Positions 29,424-61,515 of a stretch of DNA of 64,000 nt are shown here, piece after piece. How positions within the stretch are numbered: the stretch's first letter is position 1; every line of letters starts with the position of its first letter. Source of the DNA: Bacteroides uniformis (GTDB lineage Bacteria > Bacteroidota > Bacteroidia > Bacteroidales > Bacteroidaceae). The translations under genes were made by a program, and so were the position numbers. The notes under the pieces were generated by a model that was given only the letters and a program-made list of their open reading frames with translations, did no database searches and had not been told where the DNA came from. The stretch is taken from the NCBI RefSeq assembly GCF_025147485.1, contig NZ_CP102263.1, positions 2,307,501 to 2,371,500 on the forward strand, in the 5' to 3' direction.

Positions 29424-29449
29424 AAGTCTTTCCTTTTTTCGATTTGATA

Positions 29450-29481: not shown

Positions 29482-29496
29482 AAGGTGTCCGCAAAC

Positions 29497-30126: not shown

Positions 30127-30182
30127 ACGGGGCAATGTGGATATGCGGAAGTTATGCTAACTTTGTCTTATAAACGGTTGTT

Positions 30183-30905: not shown

Positions 30906-30927
30906 CCGGGAATAAATCCACGTCCGT

Positions 30928-32417: not shown

Positions 32418-32448
32418 ATCCTGTATTTTTTTGTTTTCGTTTCTTTAT

Positions 32449-33614: not shown

Positions 33615-33618
33615 ATAT

Positions 33619-33840: not shown

Positions 33841-33859
33841 AATTGTATTTTTATAGGGT

Positions 33860-34930: not shown

Positions 34931-34950
34931 AATGGTAAAATATTTGTAAG

Positions 34951-35160: not shown

Positions 35161-35179
35161 GTTTTTTGTATTTTAGGAG

Positions 35180-35392
35180 TTATGCAAGCATGCCCATGAC
35201 GGACAGGATAAGGATGACTTTTATCACAAGGAGGAATGCCCTGAAGAGGAATCCTATGATTGTTCCCGATAAAAGGAACAGGACGATCAGGTACACGGGA
35301 ATGATTCCCTTGCTGTAGAGCAGGCATATTCCCGTAAGCAGGACCAGTGAGACCACTCGCTTGCAGATGTTTTCGATGAGTCGCAGTTTCAT
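35180..35392 (-). CDS. Small membrane protein of unknown function
   Basis: The 70-residue protein has two hydrophobic helices: VVSLVLLTGICLLY (about 13-26) and a second long one covering VYLIVLFLLSGTIIGFLF through VILILSVMGMLA (about 33-69). No family recognised. It is the first gene of the PRTRC operon after a non-coding gap that contains a long palindrome. Confidence 0.55.
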   Translation of the reverse strand: MKLRLIENICKRVVSLVLLTGICLLYSKGIIPVYLIVLFLLSGTIIGFLFRAFLLVIKVILILSVMGMLA

Positions 35393-35460
35393 ATCTTTAA
35401 ATTTTTAAGAATGAATAATCCCATCGGGATATGTTTTCCCGATTTTATAGGCCTCCGGCC

Positions 35461-35586
35461 CTTGGATTGCCTTTTTGCGCAAGGCTTGGCAAAAGAAAAT
35501 ACCGCAGCGTAGCGAGGATGATTTTCTTTTGACCAACCAAGCCCCCAAAGGGGGCCGCCTTGCGGCAAAAACGAGGCAATCCAAGA
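35461..35586. repeat. Long non-coding palindrome between topoisomerase and PRTRC genes
   Basis: Left arm 35461-35500 (CTTGGATTGCCT, TTTTGCGCAAGGC, TTGG, CAAAAGAAAAT in order) pairs with right arm 35521-35586, which has the same blocks inverted plus two insertions, one a GGCCCCCTTTGGGGGC mini-hairpin. The central 20 bp (35501-35520, ACCGCAGCGTAGCGAGGATG) stay unpaired. It folds as a large hairpin on either strand. A related partial copy is at 28700. Terminator, transfer or single-strand origin are possible roles. Confidence 0.7.
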
Positions 35587-35703
35587 CCTTTGCCGGTTAA
35601 AAGCGGAAAAACTATCCAATCTCCCATGAAAAAAGGAGTACGGCATTGAAAGCCTGTACTCCCTGCTCTTTTGAGAATCGTCCCGTGCCGGTGGCGTAAT
35701 ATC

Positions 35704-37464
35704 CTACGGGTTGTTTTTAGCCTGATAGATCCGGAATATCTCACCGGTCACCTCCTTCACCTGTTCCAGTACCCCTCCCAGGAACTCCTCTTGCGTGAGT
35801 TTTCCCTGTTCTATCCGTGCCACTTCCGCTTCCCATCCGGAAGTGAGGGAGGTGTCGGCCACTTTCATCCCACGTACCGTTTCATAGAAGAAAAGCCCTT
35901 TTGGGGTGGGGATGACATATTTGCCTGAATAGCGGATATATTTACGCTCCAGCAGTGTGCGGATGATATTGGTACGCGTGGAGACGGTCCCTAATCCGCT
36001 CCGGTCCATATAGCCGACCAGCTCCTCATCCGTATAGGGGGATACCGGAAGTGTTCTCTTGCGGACGATATTGCATCCGCTTACCGGTACCGGCTCTCCC
36101 GGGGAGAAATCTGGTAGCGCGGAACAGGGCATACCCCCCCTTGCGATAAGATGTTCCCGCCCGAAGATGCTGAGCCACCCCTTTTTCAGGACGCGGTACG
36201 TTTGGACGCTGAACTTCCGTGCGGCACATACTACGTCGATGGTCGTATATTCCACCCGGCAGGATGGCATGAAGGCTTCGAGTGTCCTGCCGAGAATGAG
36301 CGTATAGACCAGTTGTTCCTCCTTGTTCAATGTTCCGGGGGGCATGCCGGTGACAATGATCGCGTGGTGATCTGTCGTCTCCTGTGCGCTGATGTCGCTT
36401 GGCGGCGCGGCAAAGTCCGTCATTTTGGCGTATTGGCGGAATTCCTTGCGGGAAAGAATCTTTTCCATGACAGCGGGCAACGTGTCATATACGTCCCTTG
36501 TCAGCAGGCGGCTGGCGGTACGCGGATAGGAGATCAGTTTCTTTTCGTACAGGCCTTGGGTGATATCCTGTACCTGTATGGCTGTCAGGTTGTGGTAACG
36601 GTTCGCGTCCTTCTGAAGTTCGGTCAGGTTGTAGGGAGCCGGTGCCCGGATGTCCTCGCTCTCGCGGCTGACCGTCGCGATACGTGCGTTCCGTACCGCC
36701 TTGCAGTCACCGTACAGTTCTGACGCGTACCGGTACTCCTGAAAATCTTCCGTGTGGCGCAGTTTTATGATTTGTCGGTCCTTGCAGAGACTGACGAATA
36801 CCGGCCAGCTGTCGGCTGGCAGGAAATTCTCCCTCTCCCGGTACCGTCTGCATATCTCCGCCAGTACGGGGGTCTGTACCCTGCCCAGCGAATTGTTCCC
36901 GAAGCTTACCGCCTTACAGATGGCATAGCTTGAATTGACCCCCAGGAGCCAGTCCGCCCGGTTACGGCTGTCCGCCGCAAGGAACAGGTTGTCGAACCGA
37001 TCACATGGAAGGAGGTTCGCCATACCTTCCGTGATGGCCTCGTCCGTCAGAGACGAGATCCAGAGGCGGAGGCAGGGTTGTTTACATCCCAGAAAACCGT
37101 AAAGATGGCGGAACAGCATCTCTCCCTCTCGGGAGGCATCGGTTGCCGCGATAATGGTGTCGCATGCGTTGAGCACCTTGGCAATCACTTTCAACTGGAG
37201 CACCGCATTGATGTCGGGATTCCACCCGGTATCCGTCTTCACGTGCCTTACTGTCAGGAAGGAAGGCGGCAGCAGAGGAAAGTCCTTCCACTCCACATGG
37301 GCTGTTCCTGAATCCTTCGGCATTGCAAGGGAAAGCATATTGCCGTATGTCCATGTCACCATGTAGCCGTTCCCGGTCATATAACCGTTCTCTTTTCTGC
37401 CGGCTCCCAACACTCTTGCTATCTCTCTGCCCACGTTGGGCCTGTCAGTCACTATTGCGATCAT
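35704..37464 (-). CDS. topB: DNA topoisomerase III (type IA)
   Basis: The 586-residue protein has the toprim start MIAIVTDRPNVGREIARVL, the acidic ATDASREGE (about 107-115) and SLGRVQTP (about 192-199). The catalytic Tyr is about residue 313 in KLISYPRTASRLLT. It lacks the long zinc-finger C-terminus of chromosomal TopA. Small TopB versions like this are carried by Bacteroides conjugative transposons, where they help transfer or resolve replicated DNA. It is followed by a palindrome and the PRTRC operon. Confidence 0.93.
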   Translation of the reverse strand: MIAIVTDRPNVGREIARVLGAGRKENGYMTGNGYMVTWTYGNMLSLAMPKDSGTAHVEWKDFPLLPPSFLTVRHVKTDTGWNPDINAVLQLKVIAKVLNACDTIIAATDASREGEMLFRHLYGFLGCKQPCLRLWISSLTDEAITEGMANLLPCDRFDNLFLAADSRNRADWLLGVNSSYAICKAVSFGNNSLGRVQTPVLAEICRRYRERENFLPADSWPVFVSLCKDRQIIKLRHTEDFQEYRYASELYGDCKAVRNARIATVSRESEDIRAPAPYNLTELQKDANRYHNLTAIQVQDITQGLYEKKLISYPRTASRLLTRDVYDTLPAVMEKILSRKEFRQYAKMTDFAAPPSDISAQETTDHHAIIVTGMPPGTLNKEEQLVYTLILGRTLEAFMPSCRVEYTTIDVVCAARKFSVQTYRVLKKGWLSIFGREHLIARGGMPCSALPDFSPGEPVPVSGCNIVRKRTLPVSPYTDEELVGYMDRSGLGTVSTRTNIIRTLLERKYIRYSGKYVIPTPKGLFFYETVRGMKVADTSLTSGWEAEVARIEQGKLTQEEFLGGVLEQVKEVTGEIFRIYQAKNNP

Positions 37465-37537
37465 ATTCTTTTTCTTTTTGATGCCCCGTACCGGATTGGG
37501 CAGTACAGGGACAGGTTAAACTTATTTTATTTTTTTG

Positions 37538-37813
37538 TTATTTCTTTGGAGATTCCTCCTGACGGATGCCGTTGATTTCCATGATTGTCCTGTTGTTGTC
37601 ACCGGGTACCAGTTTGAGTGTAGCGTCCATGGTCAGGCTGATTACCGGGGTACAGAGTTTCAACGGGATGATTTCCGACTCCTTGCCTTGCAACAACAGG
37701 TCAAGGTTGCCGTCCGCTTCCAGTTGCTCCTTGCTGATACCCACGGCCTTCAGACCGGGCCAATCAATATCTTTTACATTATAATTATAAGGGATGTTCC
37801 GATTCGTATTCAT
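37538..37813 (-). CDS. Short DUF4099 protein
   Basis: About 91 residues from MNTNRNIPYNYNVKDIDWPG; an upstream ATG at 37846 would add eleven residues. The whole length (IDWPGLKAVGISKEQLEADGNLDLLLQGKESEIIPLKL) matches the DUF4099 unit that also occurs inside the next gene (about 190-270 there: MIDWEGLDKIGISKATLEQQ). It looks like a duplicated or detached copy of that domain. Function unknown; seen in mobile elements together with TopB. Confidence 0.75.
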   Translation of the reverse strand: MNTNRNIPYNYNVKDIDWPGLKAVGISKEQLEADGNLDLLLQGKESEIIPLKLCTPVISLTMDATLKLVPGDNNRTIMEINGIRQEESPKK

Positions 37814-37867
37814 ACGGTTTGGGGATTTGATGTTTGTAAAATTCATTTTGTTTCTCTCTGATTGGGG

Positions 37868-39703
37868 TTATACCGCTTGTTTTGCGCCCTTCTTTTGTTC
37901 CTGCTGCTGGCCTTGGGCGGTATCCGCCTGTGCTGCACGACGGGAAGTATCCCTGCGAATATCAGGGTTCTCTTGGAAATACTGCAACTGTCCGGAATAA
38001 GGGTTTACTTTCAGGTAGGAACTGAACGTTTGCCCGTTGTTTTTCAGTCCTTCGACCAGGAGGGTCTTCCCGTCCTGGAGGTTCGCCTTTTCCTGCGCCG
38101 TGAATACATGGCCGTAAACCTCCGCCGGGATACGTGGTGCCTGCTGCTCGTTGAACCCATCCGGCGTGCGTGAGTACATCGTCCTGCCGGTATTCATGTC
38201 CAGCTTGACAAATGCGGAGAATTCCTCTCCCTTACGGTTGATCATGTTTTCCAGATAGACGGCCTGCCCCTTGCGCAGGACCTCCTTGTCCTCGGCTGTC
38301 AGCTGCACGTTGCAGATTTCCTTTGGAATATAGATTTCTCCGGTTTCCGGATTATGACGGGTGTAATTCGGCCGTCCCGTCGTCTGGTCTATCGTGACAA
38401 ACGCGGAGAAAGCTCCATCCCTGTTCTTGAACTTCATGTCCTCGACCAGGATGGTATGTCCCTCGCTGAGCATCTTTATCTGGGTGGGCGAGAGTGGCAC
38501 GCCCCCGATGGACTTCTCGTTGAATACCTGGTTCTTCGGGAAGATGAACTCCAACCCCCTGCGCTCGGCACTGTATTGAAGCGTGGCGTCAAACTCCTTC
38601 CCCGCCTTGGAGGTCATCCCCTCCACCTTGACGGGTTGTCCCTCCTTCAGCAGTCTGATCTCCTCGTCCGTAAGTCTTACCCCGCTCACTTCCTGCGGGA
38701 TGTAGACATGTTCCTGCCGGACGGCGACCAGCTCGTTGGTGTTTTTGTCGATGGAGATCAGGCAGGGGGTGTACTCGCTGCCACGCAGGTTGAGTTCCAC
38801 CGCACGTCCCATGTTGCCGGTCTCACGCAGGTTCTTCTTGTCTTCCTCGCTAAAGTTAAACCCGAAATAAGGGCGTTCCAGTTGCGGTTCCTTGCGTATA
38901 CCGTGAACGGCCAGCCCCACCTGCCCGTTCTCTTGCGGTATGAGCGAGAGCCTCGCATCCAGTTTGGCTGTCAGCACGCCGGGAATGTTAAGTGTCAGCG
39001 GCACCAGCTTGTTGGTCTTGTAACCTCTCAGCATGGAGTCAAGAAGTCCTTGCTGTTCGAGTGTCGCCTTTGAGATACCGATCTTGTCCAATCCCTCCCA
39101 GTCGATCATGTTCTCATTGTAACGATAGCGCGGGCCTTGCGGCTCTTGTGGCACCTGCTGTGCCTGCGGTTGCTGTTGTTGCTGGGATGCTTGTTGTACC
39201 TCACTCTGTTGCAGGGGTTCCTGCGGTTGCGTTTCTTTTTTTGCCATGGCTGTCTCTTGTTTATTCATGTTTTGTTCCTCTTTGTTCTCTCTCGGACGGA
39301 TCTCGTAGCGTTTGAGGAACTCCTTCACCACGTCCGTCTTTTTCCCTTCCGCCAGGTCCTTGATCGCCTGCTTGTTCACCTTGTAGTCGTGGAAGGTCAT
39401 GCGGAGCAGGCGGAAATGGGTCGGTTCCTTGAACTGGCTCCAGAAATTCTTGATGAAGTTTTCGAGTATGCTCGAGTTCTTGTCGAATTTCAGGAATGAG
39501 TTTTCATTCTTCTCGTCCGCTGGAACCGTCTTGACCTTCCCGTCCTTGTCGATCTCGCTGACCACTTGTACACCGGCTTTCGGATCGCTCTTGTTATGAA
39601 TCATCATCAGCTCGGTGATCTGTTCCACCAAAGGGGCATCGTTCATGACCTTCGGTTTCCGGGGCCGTCCAGGCTTCTCGTTTGGGCTCTTTTCTTGTGC
39701 CAT
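37868..39703 (-). CDS. DUF4099/DUF3945 repeat protein of Bacteroides mobile elements
   Basis: About 611 residues from MAQEKSPNEKPGRPRKPKV; an earlier in-frame ATG (39745) lies upstream of the -7 box. The parts are: a basic N-terminus, a helical region (about 20-140), a Gln-rich linker (about 150-190, poly-Q), one DUF4099 unit, then at least four DUF3945-type repeats of about 60-80 residues, each with (V/I)xLTxEExxxLxxGxxVxVExM. Such proteins are widespread in conjugative elements; their role is unknown. It is the first gene of an operon behind the 10-bp repeats at 39791. Confidence 0.85.
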   Translation of the reverse strand: MAQEKSPNEKPGRPRKPKVMNDAPLVEQITELMMIHNKSDPKAGVQVVSEIDKDGKVKTVPADEKNENSFLKFDKNSSILENFIKNFWSQFKEPTHFRLLRMTFHDYKVNKQAIKDLAEGKKTDVVKEFLKRYEIRPRENKEEQNMNKQETAMAKKETQPQEPLQQSEVQQASQQQQQPQAQQVPQEPQGPRYRYNENMIDWEGLDKIGISKATLEQQGLLDSMLRGYKTNKLVPLTLNIPGVLTAKLDARLSLIPQENGQVGLAVHGIRKEPQLERPYFGFNFSEEDKKNLRETGNMGRAVELNLRGSEYTPCLISIDKNTNELVAVRQEHVYIPQEVSGVRLTDEEIRLLKEGQPVKVEGMTSKAGKEFDATLQYSAERRGLEFIFPKNQVFNEKSIGGVPLSPTQIKMLSEGHTILVEDMKFKNRDGAFSAFVTIDQTTGRPNYTRHNPETGEIYIPKEICNVQLTAEDKEVLRKGQAVYLENMINRKGEEFSAFVKLDMNTGRTMYSRTPDGFNEQQAPRIPAEVYGHVFTAQEKANLQDGKTLLVEGLKNNGQTFSSYLKVNPYSGQLQYFQENPDIRRDTSRRAAQADTAQGQQQEQKKGAKQAV

Positions 39704-39742
39704 ACCTTTTCTTTTTGGGGTTAATAAATTGCTTTGACACTT

Positions 39743-39750
39743 CAAAAATA
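39743..39750 (-). promoter_or_regulatory. -7 promoter box of the DUF3945-topB operon
   Basis: TATTTTTG on the minus strand, 40 bp before the ATG at 39703, matches TAnnTTTG. The -33 element is weak (TGTTTT). Confidence 0.5.
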
Positions 39751-39790
39751 TGGGCTAAATCCGAATAAAACACTGATTTTCAAAAAGGTG

Positions 39791-39820
39791 TCATCAGATG
39801 TCATCAGATGTCGTCAAATG
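39791..39820 (+). repeat. Three 10-bp direct repeats upstream of the DUF3945 operon
   Basis: TCATCAGATG twice (39791-39810) and TCGTCAAATG (39811-39820). The exact 10-bp spacing places each unit on the same face of the helix. It is the third array of its kind in the island. Confidence 0.8.
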
Positions 39821-40555
39821 TCCGAAAGACTGGTTTTCCGTGAGAGAAACATGCCGTGAAAACAAGGATATGGTATGCGGAGGAAGGGCGAAGAAGCCGG
39901 CACGGGCGCAAAGGGAGGATTATGCAGAGCAGAGGGAGCTGAAGTCCCTGTCTTCTCATGGGGCGGCGTTTTTTTCATAAGACATTGCAGGTCTGCCCAT
40001 ATATCCCGTACTTCCTGCCGAATTTATTAGGGATATAAAGGAGGCCCTCCTTTTTTCATCAATGACACGGTCATGCGTCGCGTCGGTCGCAGTGAGTCCC
40101 TATAATCTTTCCCGAAATCAAAACCATTGTCCGGGCGTTTGTTTCCATGTGTATTTTCCGCGACTTGTCGCAAGGAAAATACTCATGGAAAGCGAAGCCG
40201 GAACGCCCGTGACAATACGGTTTTGATTTATCTTTGATTATAGGGAACTCGCTGGTATCCGTCTGTTTTTACGAATTTCCCAGAAAACATATACTGTCTT
40301 GTTGTTTATGCGATATAAATATTTCTAGACTTGTTCCACGGAAAAAACGTCGCTTTTCATTTTCGGACTTTGATTCTTTACGAGGCTATTTGGACTGTCT
40401 TTCAAGAAGATTTACAGAGTTTGGCATCGGCATCAGGTGATATTCGGTGTTCCAAGTGGAGAAGCGGAATCCATGACTAAATATTTTCTTCCTTCAACAA
40501 TATAGCCCACGGGTTGTATCTATGTACCTATTATTCATCATAAAACAGACTATAT
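39821..40555. other. Gap between the DUF3945 operon and the recombinase gene
   Basis: A 60-codon frame (39798-39980) and a 68-codon frame (40234-40440) are open but have no family features and overlap repeats, so neither is called. The main content is the 157-bp palindrome described separately. The last 300 bp before the recombinase is A/T-rich and probably holds its promoter. Confidence 0.5.
40094..40250. repeat. 157-bp near-perfect palindrome
   Basis: Matching blocks in order on the left arm are GAGTCCCTATAATC, AAATCAAAACC, TTGTC, GGGCGTT, TTCCATG, GTATTTTCC and CGAC; their complements occur in reverse order on the right arm, ending GATTATAGGGAACTC at 40236-40250. The centre is CGACTTGTCG near 40165. 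Arms are about 75 bp with a few mismatches. It would extrude as a cruciform or fold when single-stranded. No gene overlaps it. A transfer or single-strand replication origin, or a recombinase-related site, are possible. Confidence 0.8.
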
Positions 40556-41770
40556 ATGGCTACCATTAAATTAAAATTCCGTCCGTCGACGGTACAGGGT
40601 AAGGCCGGCACGCTCTGTTACCAGCTTTGCCACCGTCAGGAGAACAGGCAGATTACCACCGACATGAGGATATTTCCCGAGTGGTGGAATGAGACGAAAC
40701 GTGAGCTTGTCGCTGTCCCCGGCAATGAGAGGGTCCTGACCGCCTACCGGAAACGGGCGGAAAAGGAGATGCGTGACATCCGTGAGATTATCCGCGAGCT
40801 GGACTGTAGCGGAGAAACATACACCTTGTCGGAAATACTCAACCGCTATCGCTCCCTGCCTTCCGAGCCCGGTTTCCTGTACTACATGAAAAAAGAGATG
40901 GAAACGCTTTGGGAGAATGGCCAATACGGCACCTCTCGTAATTACCGGCGTGCACTGAACAGCTTTTCCGCTTTCCTGGACGGTGACGACATTCCTTTTT
41001 CATCGTTGGATTCCGCCCTGGCGTGTCGGTATGAGTCATGGTTGTGGCAACAAAAGGTAGCGAGAAACAGCAGCTCGTTCTATATGCGGATTCTGCGTGC
41101 CGTCTATAACAAGGCCGTAAAGCAAGGTCTTGCGGTGCAGACCTTTCCGTTTCGTGAGGTTTATACAGGAGTGGCTCGCACATCGAAGCGTGCCGTGGAT
41201 GAGGAAACCATTCGGAAGTTACAGCGGCTTGACCTATCCGGATCACCGGCTCTGGCACTTTCAAGAGATATGTTCGTGTTCAGCTATTGCGCCCGTGGGA
41301 TGGCGTTTGTGGATATGGCCTATTTGAAAAAAGAGGATGTAGGTGGAGGACGAATCACCTATTATCGTCATAAGACCGGGCAATACCTGACACTCCGCAT
41401 AGAGCCGTGTATGGTAACGATATTGGAACGGTATGGGCGGACTTGTCCGGAAAGTCCATATCTTTTCCCCATCCTTACCGATGAACAGCCGGAGCTGGCT
41501 TACCGTCAATATCGGACCGGATTGAACTACCATAACCGAAAGTTGAAACGGTTGGGCAAATTGCTTGGCGAACCATTACCTTTGTCCTCATATACGCCAC
41601 GCCACAGCTGGGCTACCGCCGCACGCAACCACGACGTACCGATTGCCGTCATCAGTGCGGGGATGGGACACAGCAGCGAAAGGACTACGCTTATTTACTT
41701 GGATTCTTTGGACAATGCCATAATAGATAATGCGAACGAGAAGATTTTGAACGATACCATTTCTATGTAA
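40556..41770 (+). CDS. Tyrosine site-specific recombinase, probable invertase of the CPS promoter
   Basis: The 404-residue protein has a SAM-like core-binding domain (about 110-205) and a catalytic domain with Arg about 247 (SYCARGMAF), Arg349/His350 (YTPRHSWATAA), His372 (GMGHSS) and the nucleophile Tyr381 (TLIYLDSLD). All key residues are present. Its last codons (ACC ATT TCT ATG TAA) are the left arm of the 24-bp inverted repeat that bounds the upxY promoter segment. Bacteroides CPS loci often carry such a recombinase beside their invertible promoter. An integrase of the adjacent island is the alternative. Confidence 0.88.
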   Translation: MATIKLKFRPSTVQGKAGTLCYQLCHRQENRQITTDMRIFPEWWNETKRELVAVPGNERVLTAYRKRAEKEMRDIREIIRELDCSGETYTLSEILNRYRSLPSEPGFLYYMKKEMETLWENGQYGTSRNYRRALNSFSAFLDGDDIPFSSLDSALACRYESWLWQQKVARNSSSFYMRILRAVYNKAVKQGLAVQTFPFREVYTGVARTSKRAVDEETIRKLQRLDLSGSPALALSRDMFVFSYCARGMAFVDMAYLKKEDVGGGRITYYRHKTGQYLTLRIEPCMVTILERYGRTCPESPYLFPILTDEQPELAYRQYRTGLNYHNRKLKRLGKLLGEPLPLSSYTPRHSWATAARNHDVPIAVISAGMGHSSERTTLIYLDSLDNAIIDNANEKILNDTISM

Positions 41771-41982
41771 GAGAGGGTACACATGTTGTTTTTTTTCTGA
41801 TAATCAAGAATATACATTGCTATAAAAGTACATTTTTGCTCGGTTTGCTCGGTTTTAGACTCGAAAATACGCTCGAATGGAAAATGCAACGTTCTCCTTT
41901 TATTTTATATTCTTATTACGGCACTATTTTGATTCATATTAAATTAGTAATATAAATTATTGATAATCAGCTGTTTGTAAAT

Positions 41983-41992
41983 GGGGGGGGGG
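41983..41992 (+). repeat. G10 tract inside the invertible segment
   Basis: Ten consecutive G flanked by TTTGTAAAT and TAAA, about 31 bp upstream of the -33 box of the upxY promoter. The same 23-bp sequence, flanks included, occurs at 58997-59019 inside an acyltransferase gene. Length changes would alter spacing upstream of the promoter. Confidence 0.85.
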
Positions 41993-42023
41993 TAAAATAA
42001 GGAAATAAAAACGTTTATTTTAC

Positions 42024-42054
42024 TTTTCAGTTTTACTGAGAATCATTACCTTTG
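42024..42054 (+). promoter_or_regulatory. Promoter of the CPS operon, ON orientation
   Basis: TTTT (42024-42027), exactly 19 bases, then TACCTTTG (42047-42054), a good fit to the Bacteroides consensus. Transcription would start near 42061, just before the right inverted-repeat arm, and run to upxY through a leader of about 205 nt. Confidence 0.75.
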
Positions 42055-42266
42055 CAGTGTGTTTTTACCCTCTCTTACATAGAAACGGTACGAATACGGG
42101 GTTACGGTATCCGCTCACTGTAGTCAGGAGCGGCCCGCATTCCGGAAGTCCTATGAAGGAAAAAACCGGATTAACCTTGATTGCTGTATCTTCCTTATTT
42201 GAAAAAGCAGAAGGTGCAGGAATGGAAATTATATCCTTTTTATCAACCCGGTAACATTACTTTTCG

Positions 42267-42815
42267 TTGAACATAGAAACACACACACACGAACATTGGT
42301 TCGCCCTAAAAGTATTTTATAACAAAGTTTTCGAGATTGAGGATATATTGAAAAAAGACAAGATCGAGACTTACATTCCTTGTGAGGAAACCTTGATGGA
42401 ACGTAACGGCATAAAGAAGAAACTCCGTCGTCCGGTCATTAATTCGCTTATGTTCTTCCGTTCAACCGTTTGTCGTGCTTTGGAAGTACAGCGACAATTC
42501 ACCAATAAGGTAATCCTATATACAAGACAGAAGGGATTGAAAAGACTTCCCCTTGCCATTCCTGATCGGGAAATGAACATTTTCATGCTGGTCACCTCGT
42601 CCGGCGAGCAGGGAATGGAATATTTCGGGGAGGACAATTCCAAGTTTCAACAGGGAGAACGTGTACGGGTCATTGACGGAAAGTTCAAGGGAGCGGAAGG
42701 GGTTATCTGCCGGATTAGGAAGAATCGCCGTTTGGTGGTCACCGTCCAAGGCGTATGCGCCGTGGCTACTTCCTATATTCCACAAGCCTTTCTACAACGG
42801 ATAGGGCAAGATTAA
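42267..42815 (+). CDS. upxY: UpxY-type NusG-like transcription antiterminator
   Basis: The 182-residue protein has an N-terminal NGN domain beginning HWFALKVFYNKVFEIEDILK and a C-terminal KOW domain (FQQGERVRVIDGKFKGAEGVICRI, about 127-150). UpxY proteins bind RNA polymerase in the leader of their own capsule operon and prevent early termination. In this frame a TAA at 42252 is followed only by TTG at 42267 as a start; the next ATG is at residue 43, inside the NGN domain, so TTG is taken. No upxZ follows, unlike many Bacteroides capsule loci. Confidence 0.9.
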   Translation: MNIETHTHEHWFALKVFYNKVFEIEDILKKDKIETYIPCEETLMERNGIKKKLRRPVINSLMFFRSTVCRALEVQRQFTNKVILYTRQKGLKRLPLAIPDREMNIFMLVTSSGEQGMEYFGEDNSKFQQGERVRVIDGKFKGAEGVICRIRKNRRLVVTVQGVCAVATSYIPQAFLQRIGQD

Positions 42816-44808: not shown

Positions 44809-47187
44809 ATGATAAAGAATAGAACGAACACAGGCAAACCTACCGATGATTTTATACGGATACAAGATTTATGGGGTATGTTTATCCCGAAATGGTATTG
44901 GTTTGCCACTTCCTTGTTCGTTGCGTTGGCAACGGCATCATTATATTTGTTGAGTACTCCTAATGTCTATACCCGGACGGCTGCCATTTTAATTAAGGAT
45001 GACTCCAAGAACAATTCTCCGGCAAGTGCAATGAATGAGTTTGCAGATATGGGTATTTTTAAATCAAACACCAATATCAACAACGAACTGCTCACCTTGA
45101 AATCCCCTACGCTGATGACAGAGGTGGTGAAGCGTTTGGGGCTAAATGAGATATATACTATTCGTAGGGGCTTAAAAAGAATAGAATTATATAAATCAAG
45201 CCCGATATTGGTGACTTATCTTTTTGATAATAAAAAAAGTGTAAGTTTTGATATAGAAGTTGGTGCACAAAACAAGTTTTATCTTTCAAACTTTATCGTT
45301 GCTGGAGAAGAAACTGGGGAACGGTTTGAAGGAATTATAGGAGATTCCATTCAAACATCAGCAGGAACATTGGCCATCAGCTTAACTTCTCAATATGAGA
45401 ATTTTTTTACAGGCAGCACTATTCAATATAGTAAAGAACCGGCTGATATGGTGGCAGACAGCTATACGCAAAAATTGTGGGCTGAATTAGGCAATGAAGA
45501 TGCCACCATTATTAATTTGAGCATTGATGATGCTTCTGTACAAAAGGCAGAAGATATATTAAATACATTGATTGAGGTTTATAACGAGAAATGGATCCAG
45601 GACAAGAACCAGATAGCAGTAAGTACCTCACGGTTTATCGGTGAACGTTTGGGCGTGATTGAAAACGAATTGGGTCATGTGGATGAGAACATCTCCAGCT
45701 ACAAGAGTGAACATCTGTTGCCGGACGTACAAGCCGCATCCAATCTGTATATGAGCCAGTCAGCTGAGAATAAAAAAGAAATTCAAGCACTCACCAATCA
45801 GCTTACCACGGCCCAGTATATTCGTCGCGAACTGAACAGCAAGGAAATGAACCAGCCATTGCCAACCAACTCCGGTATAGCTAACGTAAATATCGAAAGT
45901 CAAATCGGAGAATACAACAAGATTGTGTTGGATCGTAACCGGTTGATAGCTAACAGTAGCGAGAAGAACCCGTTGGTGAAAGATTTGGGAAACTCTATGC
46001 AGAGTATGAAGCGTACCATTTTGCAATCAGTTGATAATCTGATTGTATCACTGAATACCCAGATACGCAGTATTCGTCAACAGGAAGTGGCGACCACTCA
46101 ACAGTTAGCTTCTAATCCGAGTCAGGCCAAATACTTGTTATCGGTAGAACGTCAACAAAAAGTAAAGGAAGAGTTGTACCTGTATCTGCTCCAGAAGCGT
46201 GAAGAGAACGAACTGTCCCAAGCGTTTACCGCTTATAATACGCGAGTGATTACAGCTCCACGTGGCAGTGCTTTACCAATGGCACCGAATAAGAAAAACA
46301 TTTTGTTGGTGGCTTTTGCTCTCGGGCTTTTAGTACCGGCAGTCATTATCTTTATGCAAGAAAACATGAACACCAAAGTTCGGGGTAAGAAAGATTTGGA
46401 GAACTTGAGTGTGCCCTATTTGGGTGAAATACCATTATATTCCAATAACAAGAAAAAGAAGAACAAATCTCAGGAAAAAACAATCGTGGTGGAAGAAGGC
46501 AATCGCAACATCATCAACGAAGCTTTTCGTGTACTTCGCTCCAACGTGGACTTTATGAAAAACAAGAATACCGATCAGAAAGTATTTGTGATTACCTCTT
46601 TCAATCCGGGTAGTGGAAAGAGTTTCTTTTCGGTGAACATAGCCACGAGCTTTGCCATTAAAGGGAAAAAAGTATTGGTGATAGATGGAGATTTGCGACG
46701 AGGATCCATTTCTGCTTATGTGGGGTCGCCTAAGAAAGGTCTGAGTGACTATTTGGGTAATCGGGTGGCTAATTGGAATGAAGCGCTTGTAATAGATAAG
46801 AAACATGCCAATTTGCATGTTCTTCCTGTGGGGACCATTCCCCCGAATCCGACGGAACTGCTGGAAGATGAAAAATTTGCAACCTTGATGCAAATCTTGC
46901 GCAATGAATACGATTATATCTTTGTGGATTGTCCGCCGATAGATATCGTGGCAGACACACAAATCATAGAGCAATATGCCGACCGGACACTCTTTGTGGT
47001 ACGGGCGGGATTATTGGACCGCTCACTGTTATCTGAATTGGAAAGTATTTATCTAGAAAAGCGGTTCAAAAACCTTTCGGTAATTTTGAATGGGACGGAA
47101 AGTACTGGTGGACGCTATAGTTATCGATATGGTTACAGTTATGGTTACCACAATGGGTATACCTCTTATTACGGCAACTCAAAATAA
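44809..47187 (+). CDS. Wzc-type capsule chain-length regulator and tyrosine autokinase
   Basis: The 792-residue protein has an N-terminal Wzz domain with one helix (about 30-50), a long periplasmic coiled coil (about 260-480) and a second helix (about 505-525). A cytoplasmic BY-kinase domain follows: Walker A SFNPGSGKSFFSVNIA (about 602-617), Walker A' VLVIDGDLRRG and Walker B YIFVDCPP. The tail is a tyrosine cluster (YSYRYGYSYGYHNGY), the autophosphorylation site. It controls polymer length with Wza, Wzy and the phosphatase encoded next. Confidence 0.94.
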   Translation: MIKNRTNTGKPTDDFIRIQDLWGMFIPKWYWFATSLFVALATASLYLLSTPNVYTRTAAILIKDDSKNNSPASAMNEFADMGIFKSNTNINNELLTLKSPTLMTEVVKRLGLNEIYTIRRGLKRIELYKSSPILVTYLFDNKKSVSFDIEVGAQNKFYLSNFIVAGEETGERFEGIIGDSIQTSAGTLAISLTSQYENFFTGSTIQYSKEPADMVADSYTQKLWAELGNEDATIINLSIDDASVQKAEDILNTLIEVYNEKWIQDKNQIAVSTSRFIGERLGVIENELGHVDENISSYKSEHLLPDVQAASNLYMSQSAENKKEIQALTNQLTTAQYIRRELNSKEMNQPLPTNSGIANVNIESQIGEYNKIVLDRNRLIANSSEKNPLVKDLGNSMQSMKRTILQSVDNLIVSLNTQIRSIRQQEVATTQQLASNPSQAKYLLSVERQQKVKEELYLYLLQKREENELSQAFTAYNTRVITAPRGSALPMAPNKKNILLVAFALGLLVPAVIIFMQENMNTKVRGKKDLENLSVPYLGEIPLYSNNKKKKNKSQEKTIVVEEGNRNIINEAFRVLRSNVDFMKNKNTDQKVFVITSFNPGSGKSFFSVNIATSFAIKGKKVLVIDGDLRRGSISAYVGSPKKGLSDYLGNRVANWNEALVIDKKHANLHVLPVGTIPPNPTELLEDEKFATLMQILRNEYDYIFVDCPPIDIVADTQIIEQYADRTLFVVRAGLLDRSLLSELESIYLEKRFKNLSVILNGTESTGGRYSYRYGYSYGYHNGYTSYYGNSK

Positions 47188-47200
47188 ATAGTCAACAGGA

Positions 47201-47905
47201 ATGTGGCTTTTTCGACAGAAAAAAACATTAGCGGAAAGCGGTTTTTTCCGTGGTTTCACCGATTGCCATAGTCACTTGTTGCCAGGTATTGATGATGGAG
47301 TAAAAACAGAAGAAGAAACATGGAGAATTTTGGATGAGATGGAGCGGCAAGGAGTGCGGAAAATATGGCTTACCCCTCACGTCATGGAAGACATGTCCAA
47401 TAAAACTGTTACATTACAACAAAAATTTTTGAGCTTAAAACAAAAATATCAAGGGAAGGTGGAATTGGCTTTGGCTGCGGAATATATGTTGGATAACCTT
47501 TTTGAGGAACGGTTGGAAAAGGATGACCTGTTACCCCTTGAGGAGGGAAAACGTTATCTGTTAGTGGAAACTTCTTATTTCAATCCACCAATGGGATTAC
47601 TGTCTATTTTGCAACGCATCCAAAAGAAAGGTTATCATCCTTTGTTGGCCCATCCGGAACGATATGAGTATATGCAAATGATGGATTATAAAACGTTAAA
47701 AAAGAACCAAATTTCTTTTCAATTAAATATACCGTCATTAGTCGGAATGTATGGTAAGCACATAGAGAAGAAAGCGAAGATATTATTAAAAGCAGGAATG
47801 TATGATTTAGGAGGAAATGATGTTCACTCCCTTATTTTTTATGTGACAACTTGTAAGCAAAAAATAGACAATCTGTCTTTCTTGAAAAATGTGTGTAAAA
47901 TATAG
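47201..47905 (+). CDS. CpsB/CapC-type (PHP fold) tyrosine-protein phosphatase
   Basis: The 234-residue protein has DCHSHLLPGIDDGVKTEEET (about 21-40), the metal site of PHP phosphatases. It also has WLTPHVMEDM, LAAEYMLD, LLVETSYFNPP, PLLAHPERYEYM and GGNDVHS, each carrying conserved metal ligands. It removes phosphate from the Wzc tyrosine cluster. It follows wzc by 13 bp, the usual arrangement. Confidence 0.92.
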   Translation: MWLFRQKKTLAESGFFRGFTDCHSHLLPGIDDGVKTEEETWRILDEMERQGVRKIWLTPHVMEDMSNKTVTLQQKFLSLKQKYQGKVELALAAEYMLDNLFEERLEKDDLLPLEEGKRYLLVETSYFNPPMGLLSILQRIQKKGYHPLLAHPERYEYMQMMDYKTLKKNQISFQLNIPSLVGMYGKHIEKKAKILLKAGMYDLGGNDVHSLIFYVTTCKQKIDNLSFLKNVCKI

Positions 47906-54799: not shown

Positions 54800-54973
54800 C
54801 CGGTGTGTGAAAACCGGCAATCTACTGCGTTACCATCGACTTCGCAAAGTATTTTTTTTGGGGGGGGAACAATTATTCAAAGTGTTCCCGCTATTGAGAA
54901 ATCACCAATAGGAAATCTTTTACACACAGGAAGACATTATCTTTCTTTTCCATCATAATTAAATTTTATCTCA
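54800..54973 (+). other. Non-coding gap with T8G8 tract and hairpin
   Basis: T8 (54852-54859) joins G8 (54860-54867). GGGAACA (54865-54871) pairs with TGTTCCC (54883-54889), so tract length changes would alter the base of this hairpin. The gap lies between capE and capF, where the operon otherwise has almost no spacing. Confidence 0.6.
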
Positions 54974-57752: not shown

Positions 57753-58934
57753 ATGAAAGTTCTTTATTCTCATCATGGCATGAAAGGAAAAAATGGATGG
57801 GGACGAACCTTTTATATGGCACAAGGATTAGCAGATTTAGGACATGATGTGACCTTATTAACAATCAATCCTAAATGTTCATTCTTTAAGATAAATACTA
57901 TTATCTATCAAGGTGTTAAAATAAAAGTACTACCAGACTTTTTTCCTGCCAAAATGAAATCCTCAGGTTTTGCTATTTGGAGTACTTTATTTGGATTGAT
58001 ATACTCGATGTTCCATAAATTTGAAATATGTATAGCAGATTGTGGACATAGATTTACTTCCTTACCTTGTAAATTAAATAGATTTATTTATCATTCTGTT
58101 TATATTTCTGAGTGGTGGGATTTCTTTGGTAAAGGAGGTTATATTAAAAAGAAAAGTAGATTGTTTAGGTTAACATACGGTAGACTGGAATGCTATAATG
58201 AACTCAACGATAAAAGAAAAGCTGATGCTATAGTCGTATTATCTACTTTTATGAAAGATAGGGCTGTTGAAAATGGAATTGACTCAGAAAAAATTTTTAT
58301 TGTTCCTGGTGGGTCTATAGTGAAAGATGTAAAGCCGTTATATCCATCCTATTCATCTGTTGAAAAACGAAAAATAAATATAGCATACATTGGCATTAAT
58401 AATCACGAAATTGATTTGATAGCTCCGTTTATAGAAGCATTGAAATGTGAAAATGTTAAAAACAGTTACAGGTTGATTCTATATGGGAATACTATCTCAA
58501 ACGAAAAGTGGAATCAATTAGGATTGTCTGAAATTGCTGAATATAGAGGATGGTTAGATTATTCTAAAGATGTTTCTACCTTAAAAGATATAGATGTGTT
58601 TTTGCAATTATTAGATGACAACAATGTTTCTAAAGCTGGATGGCCTAATAAATTAGGTGATTATTTAGCATTTGGGAAGCCCGTTATATTGTCACCTTAT
58701 GGTGATATAATTGATTTTGTAAAAAATGAAAAAGGTTTTTTTATAGTAGAATACAATAAATACTCGATATTAAAAATTTTACAAGAAATTAAAGATATAC
58801 CTTATAGCGATTTAAAGACCATGGGGTACGCTAATAGGCAATTAGCGGAAAAAATCTCATGGAAAAATAGAGCAAAAAATATAGAATATATATGCAATAA
58901 AATTAGATTTAATAATGAAACTGTCAAGAATTAA
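57753..58934 (+). CDS. GT4-type glycosyltransferase, WbuB-like (possible L-FucNAc transferase)
   Basis: The 393-residue protein has a GT-B fold with N-terminal SHHGMKGKNGWGRTFYMAQGL and a C-terminal site KAGWPNKLGDYLAFGKPVILSPYGD (about 293-317). In other bacteria a WbuB transferase follows the fnlABC genes and WbuC, so an L-FucNAc transferase role is inferred from position. It is A/T-rich. Its last 20 bases overlap the start of the G10 acyltransferase. Confidence 0.82.
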   Translation: MKVLYSHHGMKGKNGWGRTFYMAQGLADLGHDVTLLTINPKCSFFKINTIIYQGVKIKVLPDFFPAKMKSSGFAIWSTLFGLIYSMFHKFEICIADCGHRFTSLPCKLNRFIYHSVYISEWWDFFGKGGYIKKKSRLFRLTYGRLECYNELNDKRKADAIVVLSTFMKDRAVENGIDSEKIFIVPGGSIVKDVKPLYPSYSSVEKRKINIAYIGINNHEIDLIAPFIEALKCENVKNSYRLILYGNTISNEKWNQLGLSEIAEYRGWLDYSKDVSTLKDIDVFLQLLDDNNVSKAGWPNKLGDYLAFGKPVILSPYGDIIDFVKNEKGFFIVEYNKYSILKILQEIKDIPYSDLKTMGYANRQLAEKISWKNRAKNIEYICNKIRFNNETVKN

Positions 58935-59344
58935 AAAACTTGTCTTCCTTCATTTACAGCATTTGCCAATGAAGTCAAGGGGTTGGAGACCAACGCTTTG
59001 TAAATGGGGGGGGGGTAAACATCAAATGCCCTAAAAAGACCTTCATCGGAGAGGACGTTATTTTCGACACAAATTATCCCGAAGATATTGTCATTGAAGA
59101 GGGCGTGCGCCTGACTGTCGGCGTCCGGATTGTAACGCATTTCATGAACCCGAAGACAGGCAGTTATGACCGCGGTCAAGTGCATGTTGGCAAAGGAGCC
59201 TACATTGGCATGGGAACAATGGTTGTCAAGCCGGTCACAATCGGAGAAGGGGCAATCGTAGGCGCCGGGGCAATAGTGACGAAAGATATACCGTCAAACG
59301 AAGTATGGGCAGGAAACCCCGCCCGCTTTATCAGAAAACGATAA
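58915..59344 (+). pseudogene. Hexapeptide acyltransferase, out of frame at a G10 tract (phase OFF)
   Basis: ATG 58915 opens a frame encoding MKLSRIKKLVFLHLQHLPMK to TLCKW, then meets G10 at 59006-59015 and stops after about ten codons. In the frame one base later the protein continues IKCPKKTFIGEDVIFDTNYP, HVGKGAYIGMGTMVVKPVTI and IVTKDIPSNEVWAGNPARFI to 59344, a complete left-handed beta-helix acyltransferase (about 143 residues). G11 or G8 would restore one frame. N-terminal and C-terminal parts both match the family, so the tract is the only lesson in the gene. A phase-variable O- or N-acetyltransferase is inferred. Confidence 0.82.
59006..59015 (+). repeat. G10 tract in an acyltransferase coding region
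   Basis: Ten G directly after AAAT, in codons for Trp-Gly-Gly-Gly. Flanking TTTGTAAAT and TAAA are identical to those of the tract at 41983. The count puts the gene out of frame. Confidence 0.9.
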
Positions 59345-59348
59345 AATT

Positions 59349-59846
59349 ATGCCAAACGCAATATTTTTTTACAGAATACAGAGGTGGTTATACTTACACC
59401 ACATTCCATTTTTACCTAAATTAATTCAACTATTAATTTTTCTGATTTACAACACTAAAATTACTGCTGATTCAAAAATCGGTAAAGGATCTTATTTTGT
59501 TTGTAAAGGAATTAGCACTGTACTAATCCCAGGAACGGAAATTGGAGAAAACTGCGTATTAGGTTTACGATTCTCAACAGTAAGAAAATTTCCATATAAA
59601 AACGTTCCTAAAATTGGCAATAACGTTTTTATCGGTCCAAACGTTGTAATCTGTGGACCAGTAGAAATTGGTGATAACTGTATTGTTGCAGCTAATTCGT
59701 TTGTTGATAAATCATTAAGGGGGGGGGTAATTGTTGCAGGCTCTCCTGCTAAAATAATCGGATATACTAAAGACTTAAACTATAATATTTCTTCAAATCA
59801 AAAAGATTTAGATGGAATAGCATCATATCTGCAACCAAAAGAGTAA
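59349..59846 (+). CDS. Hexapeptide acyltransferase with in-frame G9 tract (phase ON)
   Basis: The 165-residue protein resembles serine-acetyltransferase-like capsule enzymes: FYRIQRWLYLHHIPFLPKL N-terminus, KIGKGSYFVCKG, TEIGENCVLG, KIGNNVFIGPNVVICGPVEI and VIVAGSPAKIIGYT. Nine G (59719-59727) code for Arg-Gly-Gly-Val in the last helix turn; loss or gain of one would truncate the C-terminal 40 residues. It is a close paralogue of the next gene (same FYR-RWLYLHHIP-LPKL opening). It starts 4 bp after the G10 gene. Confidence 0.85.
   Translation: MPNAIFFYRIQRWLYLHHIPFLPKLIQLLIFLIYNTKITADSKIGKGSYFVCKGISTVLIPGTEIGENCVLGLRFSTVRKFPYKNVPKIGNNVFIGPNVVICGPVEIGDNCIVAANSFVDKSLRGGVIVAGSPAKIIGYTKDLNYNISSNQKDLDGIASYLQPKE
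59719..59727 (+). repeat. G9 tract in an acyltransferase coding region
   Basis: Nine G read as AGG GGG GGG G(TA). In frame at this length. Confidence 0.9.
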
Positions 59847-59888
59847 ATCAAAAGTTGCAATCGGATATAGTTTTAAAAGGATAAAACT

Positions 59889-60315
59889 ATGTTGAATGCA
59901 ATCTCTTTTTATCGGGTATCAAGGTGGCTGTACTTGCACCACATTCCTGTACTGCCAAAATTGATAACATTGCTTATTTTCCTAATTTACAACAGCAAGA
60001 TTCCATACCAGGCAAAGATTGGCAGAGGGTCAACTTTTGGATACGGAGGTATGGGTGTTGTTATCCATTCTAAATCAATTATAGGGGTAAACTGCACTAT
60101 ATGTCAGCAAGTTTCCATAGGGGGGTAATTCAAGATTTCCGGAAGTACCAGTGATAGGTAATAATGTTTATATTGCGAAAGGTTCTATCGTTATGGGTGG
60201 TATAACAATCGGAAACAATGTTACAATAGGAGCAAACGCAGTCGTAACCAAACCAATTCCCGATAATGCTATCGTTGCAGGCGTACCCACCAAAATTCTA
60301 AGGACTAAAGAATAA
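59889..60315 (+). pseudogene. Serine-acetyltransferase-like hexapeptide protein, out of frame at a G6 tract (phase OFF)
   Basis: ATG 59889 reads 79 codons (MLNAISFYRVSRWLYLHHIP to NCTICQQVSIGG) and stops at 60128, directly after G6 (60120-60125). With five G the frame would continue NSRFPEVPVIGNNVYIAKGS, TIGNNVTIGANAVVTKPI and IVAGVPTKILRTKE to a TAA at 60315, a full family-length protein of about 142 residues. The lesion is exactly at the G run. The gene starts 42 bp after its paralogue and ends 6 bp before the next gene. Confidence 0.82.
60120..60125 (+). repeat. G6 tract in an acyltransferase coding region
   Basis: Six G after ATA; five would keep the frame. A G4 tract with similar context (ATAGGGGTAA) lies 36 bp upstream in the same gene. 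Confidence 0.85.
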
Positions 60316-60321
60316 CATAAT

Positions 60322-61515
60322 ATGCATAAAGTTATCAACTCTTTTCGCTTGCTGAAGGAGTATTGCGAGAATGAGGGGTTCAAGGGTTGGGATCCCTATG
60401 ACGGACTTAACTCGAAGGTTTTTCAGGCGTTGCCGTTCCTGAAGAAGTCGGCAATCTGCCGCCTGGTTGTTATCCAAGGATTTAAGCGCTGCCCAGTCAA
60501 TCTCCGCAGGCTTGCGCTTGTCCCCAAGGAATATAATGCCAAGGGCATCGGGCTTTTCCTTTCCGGTTACTGCAACCTATATAATGCGGTTAAGGCAAAC
60601 CCCAAACTTGCGGAAAGCCTCGGCTCTCCCGATTCCCTGAAATCACGGATTAACGAACTGGCTGAACTGTTGATCTCTCTACAATCAAAAGGTTACAGCG
60701 GTGCTTGCTGGGGATATAACTTTGACTGGCAGGCTCGCAGACTTTTCCTTTTCCCAAAGTTTACTCCAACCGTTGTTGCGAGCAATTTCTGTGCAACCGC
60801 TCTTATGGAAGCATACGAAATTACCAGAGAGAAAAGGTTTCTTGAAATCGCTCTCAGTGCGGCACATTTCGTTATCAACGACCTTCACCGCACGGAATAT
60901 AAGGACGGATTCCTATTCTCTTACAGCCCGTTGCAGGGAAACGACACTGTCTTTAACGCCTCACTGCTCGGCTCAAGGCTGCTTAGTTTTTGCTACAAGT
61001 ACACAGGCAACGAGGAATACTGCGAACTTGCAGAGCAAAGCATAAAGGCATGCTGCTCAGGTCAAAAGCCAAACGGTGCATGGGTATATGGCATGCTACC
61101 CGTTCAGAGTTGGGTTGACAGTTTTCATACAGGCTATAACCTTGATGCGCTTATTGCATATCAGGAGCTGACAGGCGACAATAAGTATCGCAAATATATT
61201 GAGAAGGGCTTTGAATATTATATTCAAAACTTCTTTGAAGCCAACGGAATGCCAAAATACTACGACAACCGCACTTATCCCATCGACATTCACTGCCCGG
61301 GGCAGTTGCTCGTAACGCTCGCAAGGTTGCACAAGATCGAAGAATACAAGGAAATTGCAGAAAAGGTCATTGATTGGACTATCCGCAATATGCAAGACCG
61401 GAAAGGCTATTTCTACTACCAGTTAAAGCCGGGGATAAGTTCAAAAATATCATATATGCGTTGGAGCAATGCGTTTATATTTAATGCTATGAGCCATTAT
61501 TTACTTGCCGAATAA
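60322..61515 (+). CDS. Unassigned capsule-locus protein with (alpha/alpha)-toroid features
   Basis: The 397-residue protein has no signal peptide. It shows repeated helix pairs with aromatic Gly-rich turns: GACWGYNFDWQARRLF (about 127-142), SVNFCATALMEAY-like (about 152-165), GNDTVFNASLLGSRLL, NGAWVYGM, DSFHTGYNLDALIAYQ and IDIHCPGQLLVTLARL. This pattern is that of six-hairpin glycosidase-like or epimerase-like toroids. It lies between the acyltransferases and WecG. A role in modifying or trimming capsule sugar is plausible but unproven. Confidence 0.6.
   Translation: MHKVINSFRLLKEYCENEGFKGWDPYDGLNSKVFQALPFLKKSAICRLVVIQGFKRCPVNLRRLALVPKEYNAKGIGLFLSGYCNLYNAVKANPKLAESLGSPDSLKSRINELAELLISLQSKGYSGACWGYNFDWQARRLFLFPKFTPTVVASNFCATALMEAYEITREKRFLEIALSAAHFVINDLHRTEYKDGFLFSYSPLQGNDTVFNASLLGSRLLSFCYKYTGNEEYCELAEQSIKACCSGQKPNGAWVYGMLPVQSWVDSFHTGYNLDALIAYQELTGDNKYRKYIEKGFEYYIQNFFEANGMPKYYDNRTYPIDIHCPGQLLVTLARLHKIEEYKEIAEKVIDWTIRNMQDRKGYFYYQLKPGISSKISYMRWSNAFIFNAMSHYLLAE

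What the first reader, a model, noticed from the sequence alone, without database searches (positions are those of the whole stretch)
58915..60315. Three consecutive capsule acyltransferase genes each carry a poly-G tract; two are OFF, one is ON
Seen directly: G10 (59006-59015), G9 (59719-59727) and G6 (60120-60125) lie inside the coding regions of three adjacent hexapeptide acyltransferases. The G10 gene is out of frame (G11 or G8 restores it), the G9 gene is in frame, the G6 gene is out of frame (G5 restores it). In each broken gene the protein on either side of the tract is intact and family-like, so the tract is the only lesion. Known: G tracts cause slipped-strand phase variation in Campylobacter, Neisseria and Helicobacter; Bacteroides capsule variation is known mainly through DNA inversion. 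Inference: an eight-state acetylation switch on one capsule.
Basis: partly seen in the sequence, partly recalled or inferred. Interest (0 to 1): 0.87.

Follow-up and report, generated by a model that had tools for sequence, protein, structure and literature searches.

The report
Slippery poly-G switches in capsule acyltransferases
In a gut Bacteroides, neighbouring genes that probably decorate the bacterial capsule contain runs of G whose length differs between near-identical copies of the locus in other species, so that one gene is open in one copy and closed in others: apparently a fine-tuning switch beneath the known flipping of the capsule's main promoter.

Summary
The locus recurs almost unchanged in two other species, one of another genus. 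Against the nearest copy, 30,619 aligned columns hold 9 mismatches and 3 indels, at tract A, tract B and one T/G tract. B is open in the window and closed in three relative copies. A's tract also varies (10/8/8/8), but A is closed from its conserved start in all four; the claim that G8 restores it is not borne out. C's G6 is invariant and closed in all four, so an eight-state switch is not shown. C's family is nevertheless frame-hypervariable at this very site: of 120 listed relatives 57 leave the frame there, in both wrong frames, and only 2 break elsewhere. The genome's 4 coding G>=9 tracts all lie in acyltransferase genes; another species has G9, G13 and G12 in three adjacent genes. Best reading: slipped-strand phase variation of capsule acylation, under an invertible promoter that itself holds a variable poly-G. 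Switching within a clone is unproven; no reads were available.

The parts
40556..41770 (+). tyrosine recombinase (phage integrase family) beside the invertible segment
   Evidence: PF00589, PF13102
41755..41779 (+). left inverted repeat of the invertible promoter
   Evidence: 25 nt, 96% complementary to 42066-42090, 286 nt between arms
41780..42065 (.). invertible promoter segment; opposite orientation in the three other copies
41983..41992 (+). G10 tract in the invertible segment; 9 in G119, 11 and 10 in the two P. vulgatus copies
42066..42090 (-). right inverted repeat
42267..42815 (+). UpxY-family antiterminator, first gene of the capsule locus
   Evidence: NF033644 152.9 bits, cutoff 100
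54852..54867 (+). T8G8 tract between two glycan genes; T10G8 in G119, T7G9 (a substitution) in both P. vulgatus copies
57753..58934 (+). glycosyltransferase, overlaps the start of gene A
   Evidence: PF13439
58915..59034 (+). gene A, upstream part: 39 aa from the conserved start, then stop (closed)
59006..59015 (+). tract A, G10 (8 in the three relative copies)
59018..59344 (+). gene A, downstream part: hexapeptide acyltransferase, in another frame
   Evidence: PF00132
59349..59846 (+). gene B, hexapeptide acyltransferase, 165 aa, open
   Evidence: PF00132, PF14602
59719..59727 (+). tract B, G9 (7 in G119, 8 in both P. vulgatus copies, where B is closed)
59889..60128 (+). gene C, upstream part, 79 aa then stop (closed)
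60120..60125 (+). tract C, G6, invariant in the four near-identical copies
60127..60315 (+). gene C, downstream part: hexapeptide acyltransferase, in another frame
   Evidence: PF00132

Best explanation
Genes A, B and C encode capsule-modifying (probably O-acetylating) enzymes. At a Gly-Gly(-Gly) site each protein is encoded by a run of G. Replication slippage changes the run length, so single cells gain or lose the enzyme's reading frame and with it one decoration of the polysaccharide. Shown: the tracts, their length differences between near-identical copies (A and B), open and closed natural forms of B, and recurrent frame breaks at the same site in C's family (weaker evidence for A's). Inferred: slippage within one clone, acyl transfer, and selection (phage or antibody pressure). 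This fine switch sits under a coarse one, an invertible promoter that turns the whole locus on or off. C is at present probably locked off, because its tract is short and does not vary in the copies seen; A was not found open from its conserved start.
For: Window against G119: 30,619 columns, 9 mismatches, 3 indels, at tract A, tract B and the T/G tract; the inverted promoter segment adds one T-run and one G-run change. The genomes are different species: 79% (G119) and 69% (P. vulgatus) at a gene outside the block, and P. vulgatus has another genus label (g11 against g1). G/C runs of 9 or more differ in 8 of 9 comparisons (3 tracts x 3 copies: 7 of 7 by flanks, plus one different and one equal); runs of 5-6 in 0 of 30; A/T runs of 6-7 in 1 of 165, a substitution. 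B: 165 aa open in the window, 133/126/126 aa in the relatives; a database form (P0060) leaves at the same site with one Gly more than G119's. C family, 120 listed proteins: 62 in frame across the site, 21 end at it, 36 continue in another frame, 1 ends before it; of the 62, 1 lost the C-terminal motif farther on, so breaks are 57 at the site against 2 elsewhere. G227's C orthologue has G10 at the site and is broken. The 4 coding G>=9 tracts of the genome lie in acyltransferase genes; with 25 to 40 such genes in an assumed 3,700 the hypergeometric chance is 1.6e-9 to 1.2e-8 (searches give 9 plus 20 gene regions).
Against: No read data, so no mixture within a clone is shown. A is closed from its conserved start in 4 of 4 copies, and no full-length near-identical A was among the best 120 of 510 database matches. 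C does not vary in 4 of 4 copies. A/T runs of 8 also differ in 5 of 9 comparisons, so part of this may be general long-homopolymer instability or assembly error. The P. vulgatus copies, less alike, have other indels too (7 and 8 in all, 2 each at tracts A and B), and are not independent of each other at A and B. Long G runs are common in the genus (91 of 95 genomes have one of 9 or more) and many lie in unrelated genes. The acyltransferase class was chosen after seeing the tracts, and neighbouring genes are not independent, so the hypergeometric figure is optimistic. One C orthologue (G298, L276) is broken at the same site without a long run. The B-family listing (2 of 120 out of frame) is not a fair control: it was ranked by full-length score, which disfavours shortened proteins.
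Confidence: 0.75

Rival explanations
1. Decaying pseudogenes: long G runs are mutational hot spots, the genes are dispensable, and breaks pile up there without any selected or reversible switch.
For: A (from its conserved start) and C closed in 4 of 4 near-identical copies; no full-length near-identical A among the best 120 of 510 matches; some C-family members are broken at the site with an interrupted Gly run, e.g. P0307 on 294 contigs.
Against: No second lesion in the remaining parts of A or C; 62 of 120 C relatives are in frame; the database cluster of B with 807 member sequences has an intact representative (members not inspected, closed forms may be among them); the genome's coding runs of 9 or more sit in acyltransferase genes.
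Confidence: 0.15
2. Homopolymer miscalls: the length differences are sequencing or assembly errors.
Against: No other indel in 30.6 kb against G119, and no length change at runs of 5-7; the two copies in P. vulgatus ATCC 8482 agree at A and B; closed C alleles recur in many database clusters.
Confidence: 0.07
3. Programmed ribosomal frameshifting at the G run makes a full-length protein from the apparently broken genes.
For: C in the window and its G298 orthologue both meet a stop right after the run, with the rest open in another frame.
Against: The right frame and both wrong frames occur in C's family (62, and 21 plus 36, of 120); a programmed event would be expected to keep one direction.
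Confidence: 0.03

Closest known systems
Homopolymer (poly-G/C) contingency genes of Campylobacter, Neisseria and Helicobacter
   Same: G run in a surface-glycan gene whose length sets the reading frame
   Different: Here in a Bacteroides capsule locus that also has an invertible promoter; few tracts per genome; switching not yet shown in a clone
NeuO, phase-variable capsule O-acetyltransferase of E. coli K1 (abstracts in a search listing)
   Same: phase variation of capsule acetylation by one enzyme
   Different: NeuO is prophage-encoded (abstract); PMC3090145 (passage) speaks of repeats upstream of the gene, whereas here a G run lies inside three neighbouring genes of a chromosomal capsule locus
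Bacteroides fragilis invertible capsule promoters with UpxY antiterminators
   Same: This locus has inverted repeats, a tyrosine recombinase gene and UpxY
   Different: Inversion switches the whole locus; the G tracts would switch single modifying enzymes inside it
Broken acetyltransferase genes of the B. fragilis 638R PSI/9 locus (PMC3090145, passages read)
   Same: One of the two is broken by an extra C in a run of 4; the authors suggest that slippage could vary this polysaccharide
   Different: Comparison of two strains, a short run, no tract family; here long tracts, four near-identical copies and family-wide frame breaks

Membership tests
Simple-sequence-repeat phase-variable (contingency) gene | homopolymer inside the ORF whose length sets the frame | tested here: met
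   A, B, C
Simple-sequence-repeat phase-variable (contingency) gene | length varies between close copies well above background | tested here: met
   A and B: 6 of 6 comparisons differ; runs of 5-6: 0 of 30. Not met for C: 0 of 3
Simple-sequence-repeat phase-variable (contingency) gene | open and closed natural alleles of the same gene | tested here: inconclusive
   Met for B; not met for A from its conserved start; for C met only at family level
Simple-sequence-repeat phase-variable (contingency) gene | reversible switching within one clone | not testable with these tools
   no reads or cultures
Hexapeptide acyltransferase | PF00132 match above curated cutoff | tested here: met
   B and the downstream parts of A and C; C's upstream part alone gave none at E 1e-4
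Hexapeptide acyltransferase | transfers an acyl group to the capsule | not testable with these tools
   needs chemistry
UpxY-type capsule locus with invertible promoter | UpxY antiterminator | tested here: met
   NF033644 above cutoff
UpxY-type capsule locus with invertible promoter | segment between inverted repeats, found in both orientations | tested here: met
   that it holds the promoter is read from its place, not tested
UpxY-type capsule locus with invertible promoter | UpxZ gene | not tested
   no search was made for it
NeuO-type switch | prophage-borne gene with repeats outside the conserved enzyme | tested here: not met
   G run inside the coding region, in a capsule locus
Programmed frameshift gene | one conserved frameshift direction | tested here: not met
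   both wrong frames occur in C's family

The most novel reading that the evidence does not exclude
Bacteroidales capsules carry a second, general layer of variation: several families of modifying acyltransferases encode a Gly run by a G tract and are phase-variable by slippage, stacked beneath the invertible promoter (which itself holds a variable poly-G), and the whole two-layer module travels between species and genera, so that a single 'ON' capsule exists in several acylated forms.
Probability: 0.55. Interest if true: 0.8.

Novelty: new variant of a known kind. Interest (0 to 1): 0.7.

Why it matters
Capsule variation in gut Bacteroides is described mainly as whole-locus inversion. If single decorations also flicker by poly-G slippage, then inversion surveys undercount capsule states, and phage or antibody sensitivity could change while the promoter stays ON. 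The tract lengths are directly countable in existing read sets, so the idea is testable at once.

Tried and rejected
Tract count alone as evidence: rejected, since 91 of 95 genomes of the genus have a G>=9 run and many lie in unrelated genes. C as a switch active in this lineage: set aside on 0 of 3 differences, then reopened at family level. The B-family listing as a control for C's (2 of 120): dropped as unfair, because it is ranked by full-length score; the comparison now used is breaks at the site (57) against elsewhere (2) within the C listing, where only proteins of 66-210 aa were candidates, so earlier breaks are under-seen. Programmed frameshifting: rejected because both wrong frames occur. 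More copies elsewhere: window DNA had no match among plasmids and no exact flank match in viral contigs; P0245 found only distant relatives in viral contigs (6 loci, 43% at best) and plasmids (3 Vibrio records) and none in phages; P0128 found none in viral contigs. An order-wide search with P0245 (393 genomes, 32 with a match) gave outside the window's own genome only relatives of 52% identity or less. The second locus's tracts could not be compared: its best DNA relative among 158 genomes is 69% identical over a part. My first reading of A's upstream part was one base off; one search has the right one. A consensus promoter and terminator scan of 58700-60500 found no more than shuffles do. The genome contigs listing (80 loci kept of 184) held the near-identical locus in P. 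vulgatus alone; the next was 68%.
Full report
What is there. The three runs are at the stated places: G10 59006-59015, G9 59719-59727, G6 60120-60125. They lie in three consecutive genes, called A, B and C here. A starts at 58915, inside the end of a glycosyltransferase gene, and is closed after 39 aa. B is open for 165 aa. C is closed after 79 aa. B and the downstream parts of A and C match the hexapeptide transferase repeat PF00132 above its cutoff; C's upstream part alone had no match at 1e-4. The neighbourhood is a capsule locus: a UpxY antiterminator, a UDP-ManNAc dehydrogenase and a WecB above their NCBIfam cutoffs, and a polysaccharide export protein, a flippase-like protein, glycosyltransferases, sugar epimerases and a WecG-family enzyme by Pfam. 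It starts next to a 286-bp segment between 25-nt inverted repeats, beside a tyrosine recombinase gene, the layout of the B. fragilis invertible capsule promoters (recalled).

More than chance. A dinucleotide Markov model of the window gives 0.23 G/C runs of 9 or more per 64 kb, at most 2 in 300 simulations; 3 are present. GGG is 34 of 298 Gly codons in 12 genes of the locus. A homologue of A (G095, and the Bacteroides ndongoniae record L050) encodes the same Trp-Gly-Gly-Val without a run. In the whole 4.63-Mb genome there are 7 runs of 9 or more: one in the invertible segment, two in A and B, two in a second glycan locus (L012), and two with no ORF of 90 aa or more over them. The two of L012 lie in a hexapeptide gene and at the beginning of an open segment with an Acyl_transf_3 match. 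So 4 of 4 coding runs are in acyltransferase genes, a class of about 29 gene regions (9 Acyl_transf_3 matches; 31 hexapeptide matches in 20 regions). With 25 to 40 such genes in an assumed 3,700 the hypergeometric chance is 1.6e-9 to 1.2e-8. The class was picked after seeing the tracts and the genes come in neighbouring pairs, so the figure is optimistic.

Near-identical copies. Of 158 genomes of the genus searched with the 1.4-kb DNA, only G119 besides the window's own held it whole. Phocaeicola vulgatus ATCC 8482 holds it twice; its genus label differs from the window's (g11 against g1). A gene outside the block is only 79% (G119) and 69% (P. vulgatus) identical, yet the block is 99.95% identical to G119 over 30,619 columns and 98.3% and 98.6% identical to the P. 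vulgatus copies over about 35.9 kb. Against G119 there are 9 mismatches and 3 indels, at tract A, tract B and the T8G8 tract at 54852; the promoter segment, inverted there, adds a T-run change and a G-run change. The P. vulgatus copies have 7 and 8 indels in that stretch, 2 each at tracts A and B, the others near 43967, 47119-47288 and 76927-77395. Observed runs, window / G119 / P. vulgatus copy 1 / copy 2: promoter 10/9/11/10, intergenic T8G8 / T10G8 / T7G9 / T7G9 (the last two by substitution), A 10/8/8/8, B 9/7/8/8, C 6/6/6/6 (promoter of copy 2). In the flank-matched comparison G/C runs of 5-6 are unchanged in 30 of 30, A/T runs of 6-7 in 164 of 165 (the exception is a substitution), A/T runs of 8 differ in 5 of 9, the one G8 comparison that could be matched differs only through its T neighbour, and G/C runs of 9 or more differ in 7 of 7. 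add two more comparisons, one different and one equal, making 8 of 9.

State of the genes. B is open in the window and closed (133, 126, 126 aa) in the three other copies. A is closed from its conserved start in all four (39, 33, 33, 33 aa); in the three relatives an ORF of 112 aa that begins with an ATG abutting the run is open and differs from the database protein P0122 at one residue. Whether that shortened protein works is unknown. C is closed at the same place in all four. The invertible segment is oriented with the locus in the window and against it in the other three.

The families. With the N-terminal part of a C orthologue as query, 532 proteins passed 1e-12 and the best 120, the query among them, were listed. 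Of these 120, 62 run through the Gly site in the right frame, 21 end exactly there, 36 continue in another frame and 1 ends before it. One of the 62 lost its C-terminal motif farther on. So 57 break at the site and 2 elsewhere, within a list that could hold proteins of 66-210 aa. In-frame members differ in the number of Gly residues. The B listing shows 2 of 120 out of frame at its site, P0008 (which by eye continues into C-derived sequence) and P0060 (the script's other 19 misses have Cys in the motif and are in frame), but it is ranked by full-length score and is no fair control. For A, 42 of the 110 listed proteins that have the anchor motif start late, many at or just before Gly-Gly-Val, some with upstream residues that look like another frame (P0176 and P0193, which differ by one Gly); 10 of 120 lacked the anchor and were not counted. 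Late starts may also be gene-caller choices or cut contigs, so this is weaker. At the DNA level, a C orthologue in G227 has G10 at the site and is broken, while one in G298 is broken there without a long run.

Wider sample. 60 stretches holding 62 runs were fetched out of the longer listings (three from P. vulgatus), chosen for their place in the contig. Forty segments over or beside 34 of the 62 runs were scanned. Five of the 62 runs lie in Acyl_transf_3 genes: two in L193 (G030) and one each in L201, L215 and L228. Both sides of the run match the domain in different frames in L201 and, the second side below the cutoff, in L215; in L228 and at L193's G13 one side matches and the frame is broken at the run. 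In L193 three adjacent genes carry G9, G13 and G12; the second and third match Acyl_transf_3, the first had no Pfam match at 1e-4 and looks hexapeptide-like to the eye. Many other runs are in unrelated genes, in frame or at gene ends, so long G runs as such are common in this genus.

Mechanism. The most economical reading is slipped-strand mispairing at G runs that encode Gly sites of capsule acyltransferases, switching single decorations, beneath an invertible promoter that switches the whole locus. Slippage is inferred from length differences, not watched. Acyl transfer is inferred from fold and context. C looks locked at present; A was never seen open from its conserved start. Decay at hot spots and assembly error remain possible for single tracts.

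Literature. Eight searches of the held open-access library listed no title or abstract that describes poly-G phase variation in Bacteroides capsule acyltransferases; most subscription papers are not in it. Nearest is PMC3090145, of which I saw passages: two acetyltransferase-related genes of a B. fragilis polysaccharide locus are disrupted, one by an extra C in a run of four, and the authors suggest slippage as a possible source of variation. The passages of the 2025 review PMC11868660 that name Bacteroides speak of inversion where they give a mechanism. Of PMC12413058 and PMC12118408 I saw passages only, on phase-variable capsules and invertible promoters. NeuO papers were seen in a listing and its abstracts only.

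Verdict.

Noticed in passing
window 41974-41996 and 58997-59019: The invertible promoter's poly-G and gene A's poly-G share an exact 23-base string including flanks; coding constraint could explain A's flank, not the promoter's.
   Followed up: partly
window 54852-54867: T8G8 tract about 107 bases upstream of the gene starting at 54974; T10G8 and T7G9 in relatives; could tune an internal promoter.
   Followed up: partly
window 42066-72682 and beyond: Capsule block shared at 98-99.95% between species of two genera, twice in P. vulgatus ATCC 8482; 25701-41779 (PRTRC protein E, TopB-like genes) is 99.9% identical to one of those copies only, suggesting a conjugative element beside it.
   Followed up: partly
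L012:10724-10732 and 11831-11839: Second glycan locus of the same genome: G9 in a hexapeptide gene (open) and G9 at the beginning of an Acyl_transf_3 segment; from the nearest upstream ATG the reading stops just after the run (by eye).
   Followed up: partly
L193 (G030:C1:3657500-3662500): Three adjacent genes with G9, G13 and G12, two of them Acyl_transf_3; the middle one is broken at its run.
   Followed up: partly
P0307, P0313, P0332 and others: Closed C-family alleles with the Gly run interrupted by Trp, one on 294 contigs: perhaps switches locked OFF.
   Followed up: no
L197, L198, L199 (G044) and L181 (G009): A repeat 100% identical over at least 1.36 kb in three places of G044, with a transposase-like ORF (by eye), ends in G9-G12 with unrelated DNA after it; its last 67 bases before the run recur in G009. 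Perhaps an insertion sequence with a variable poly-G at its junction.
   Followed up: partly
L195 and L214: In-frame G9 runs in shikimate kinase genes of two species, a housekeeping gene with a slippery site.
   Followed up: no
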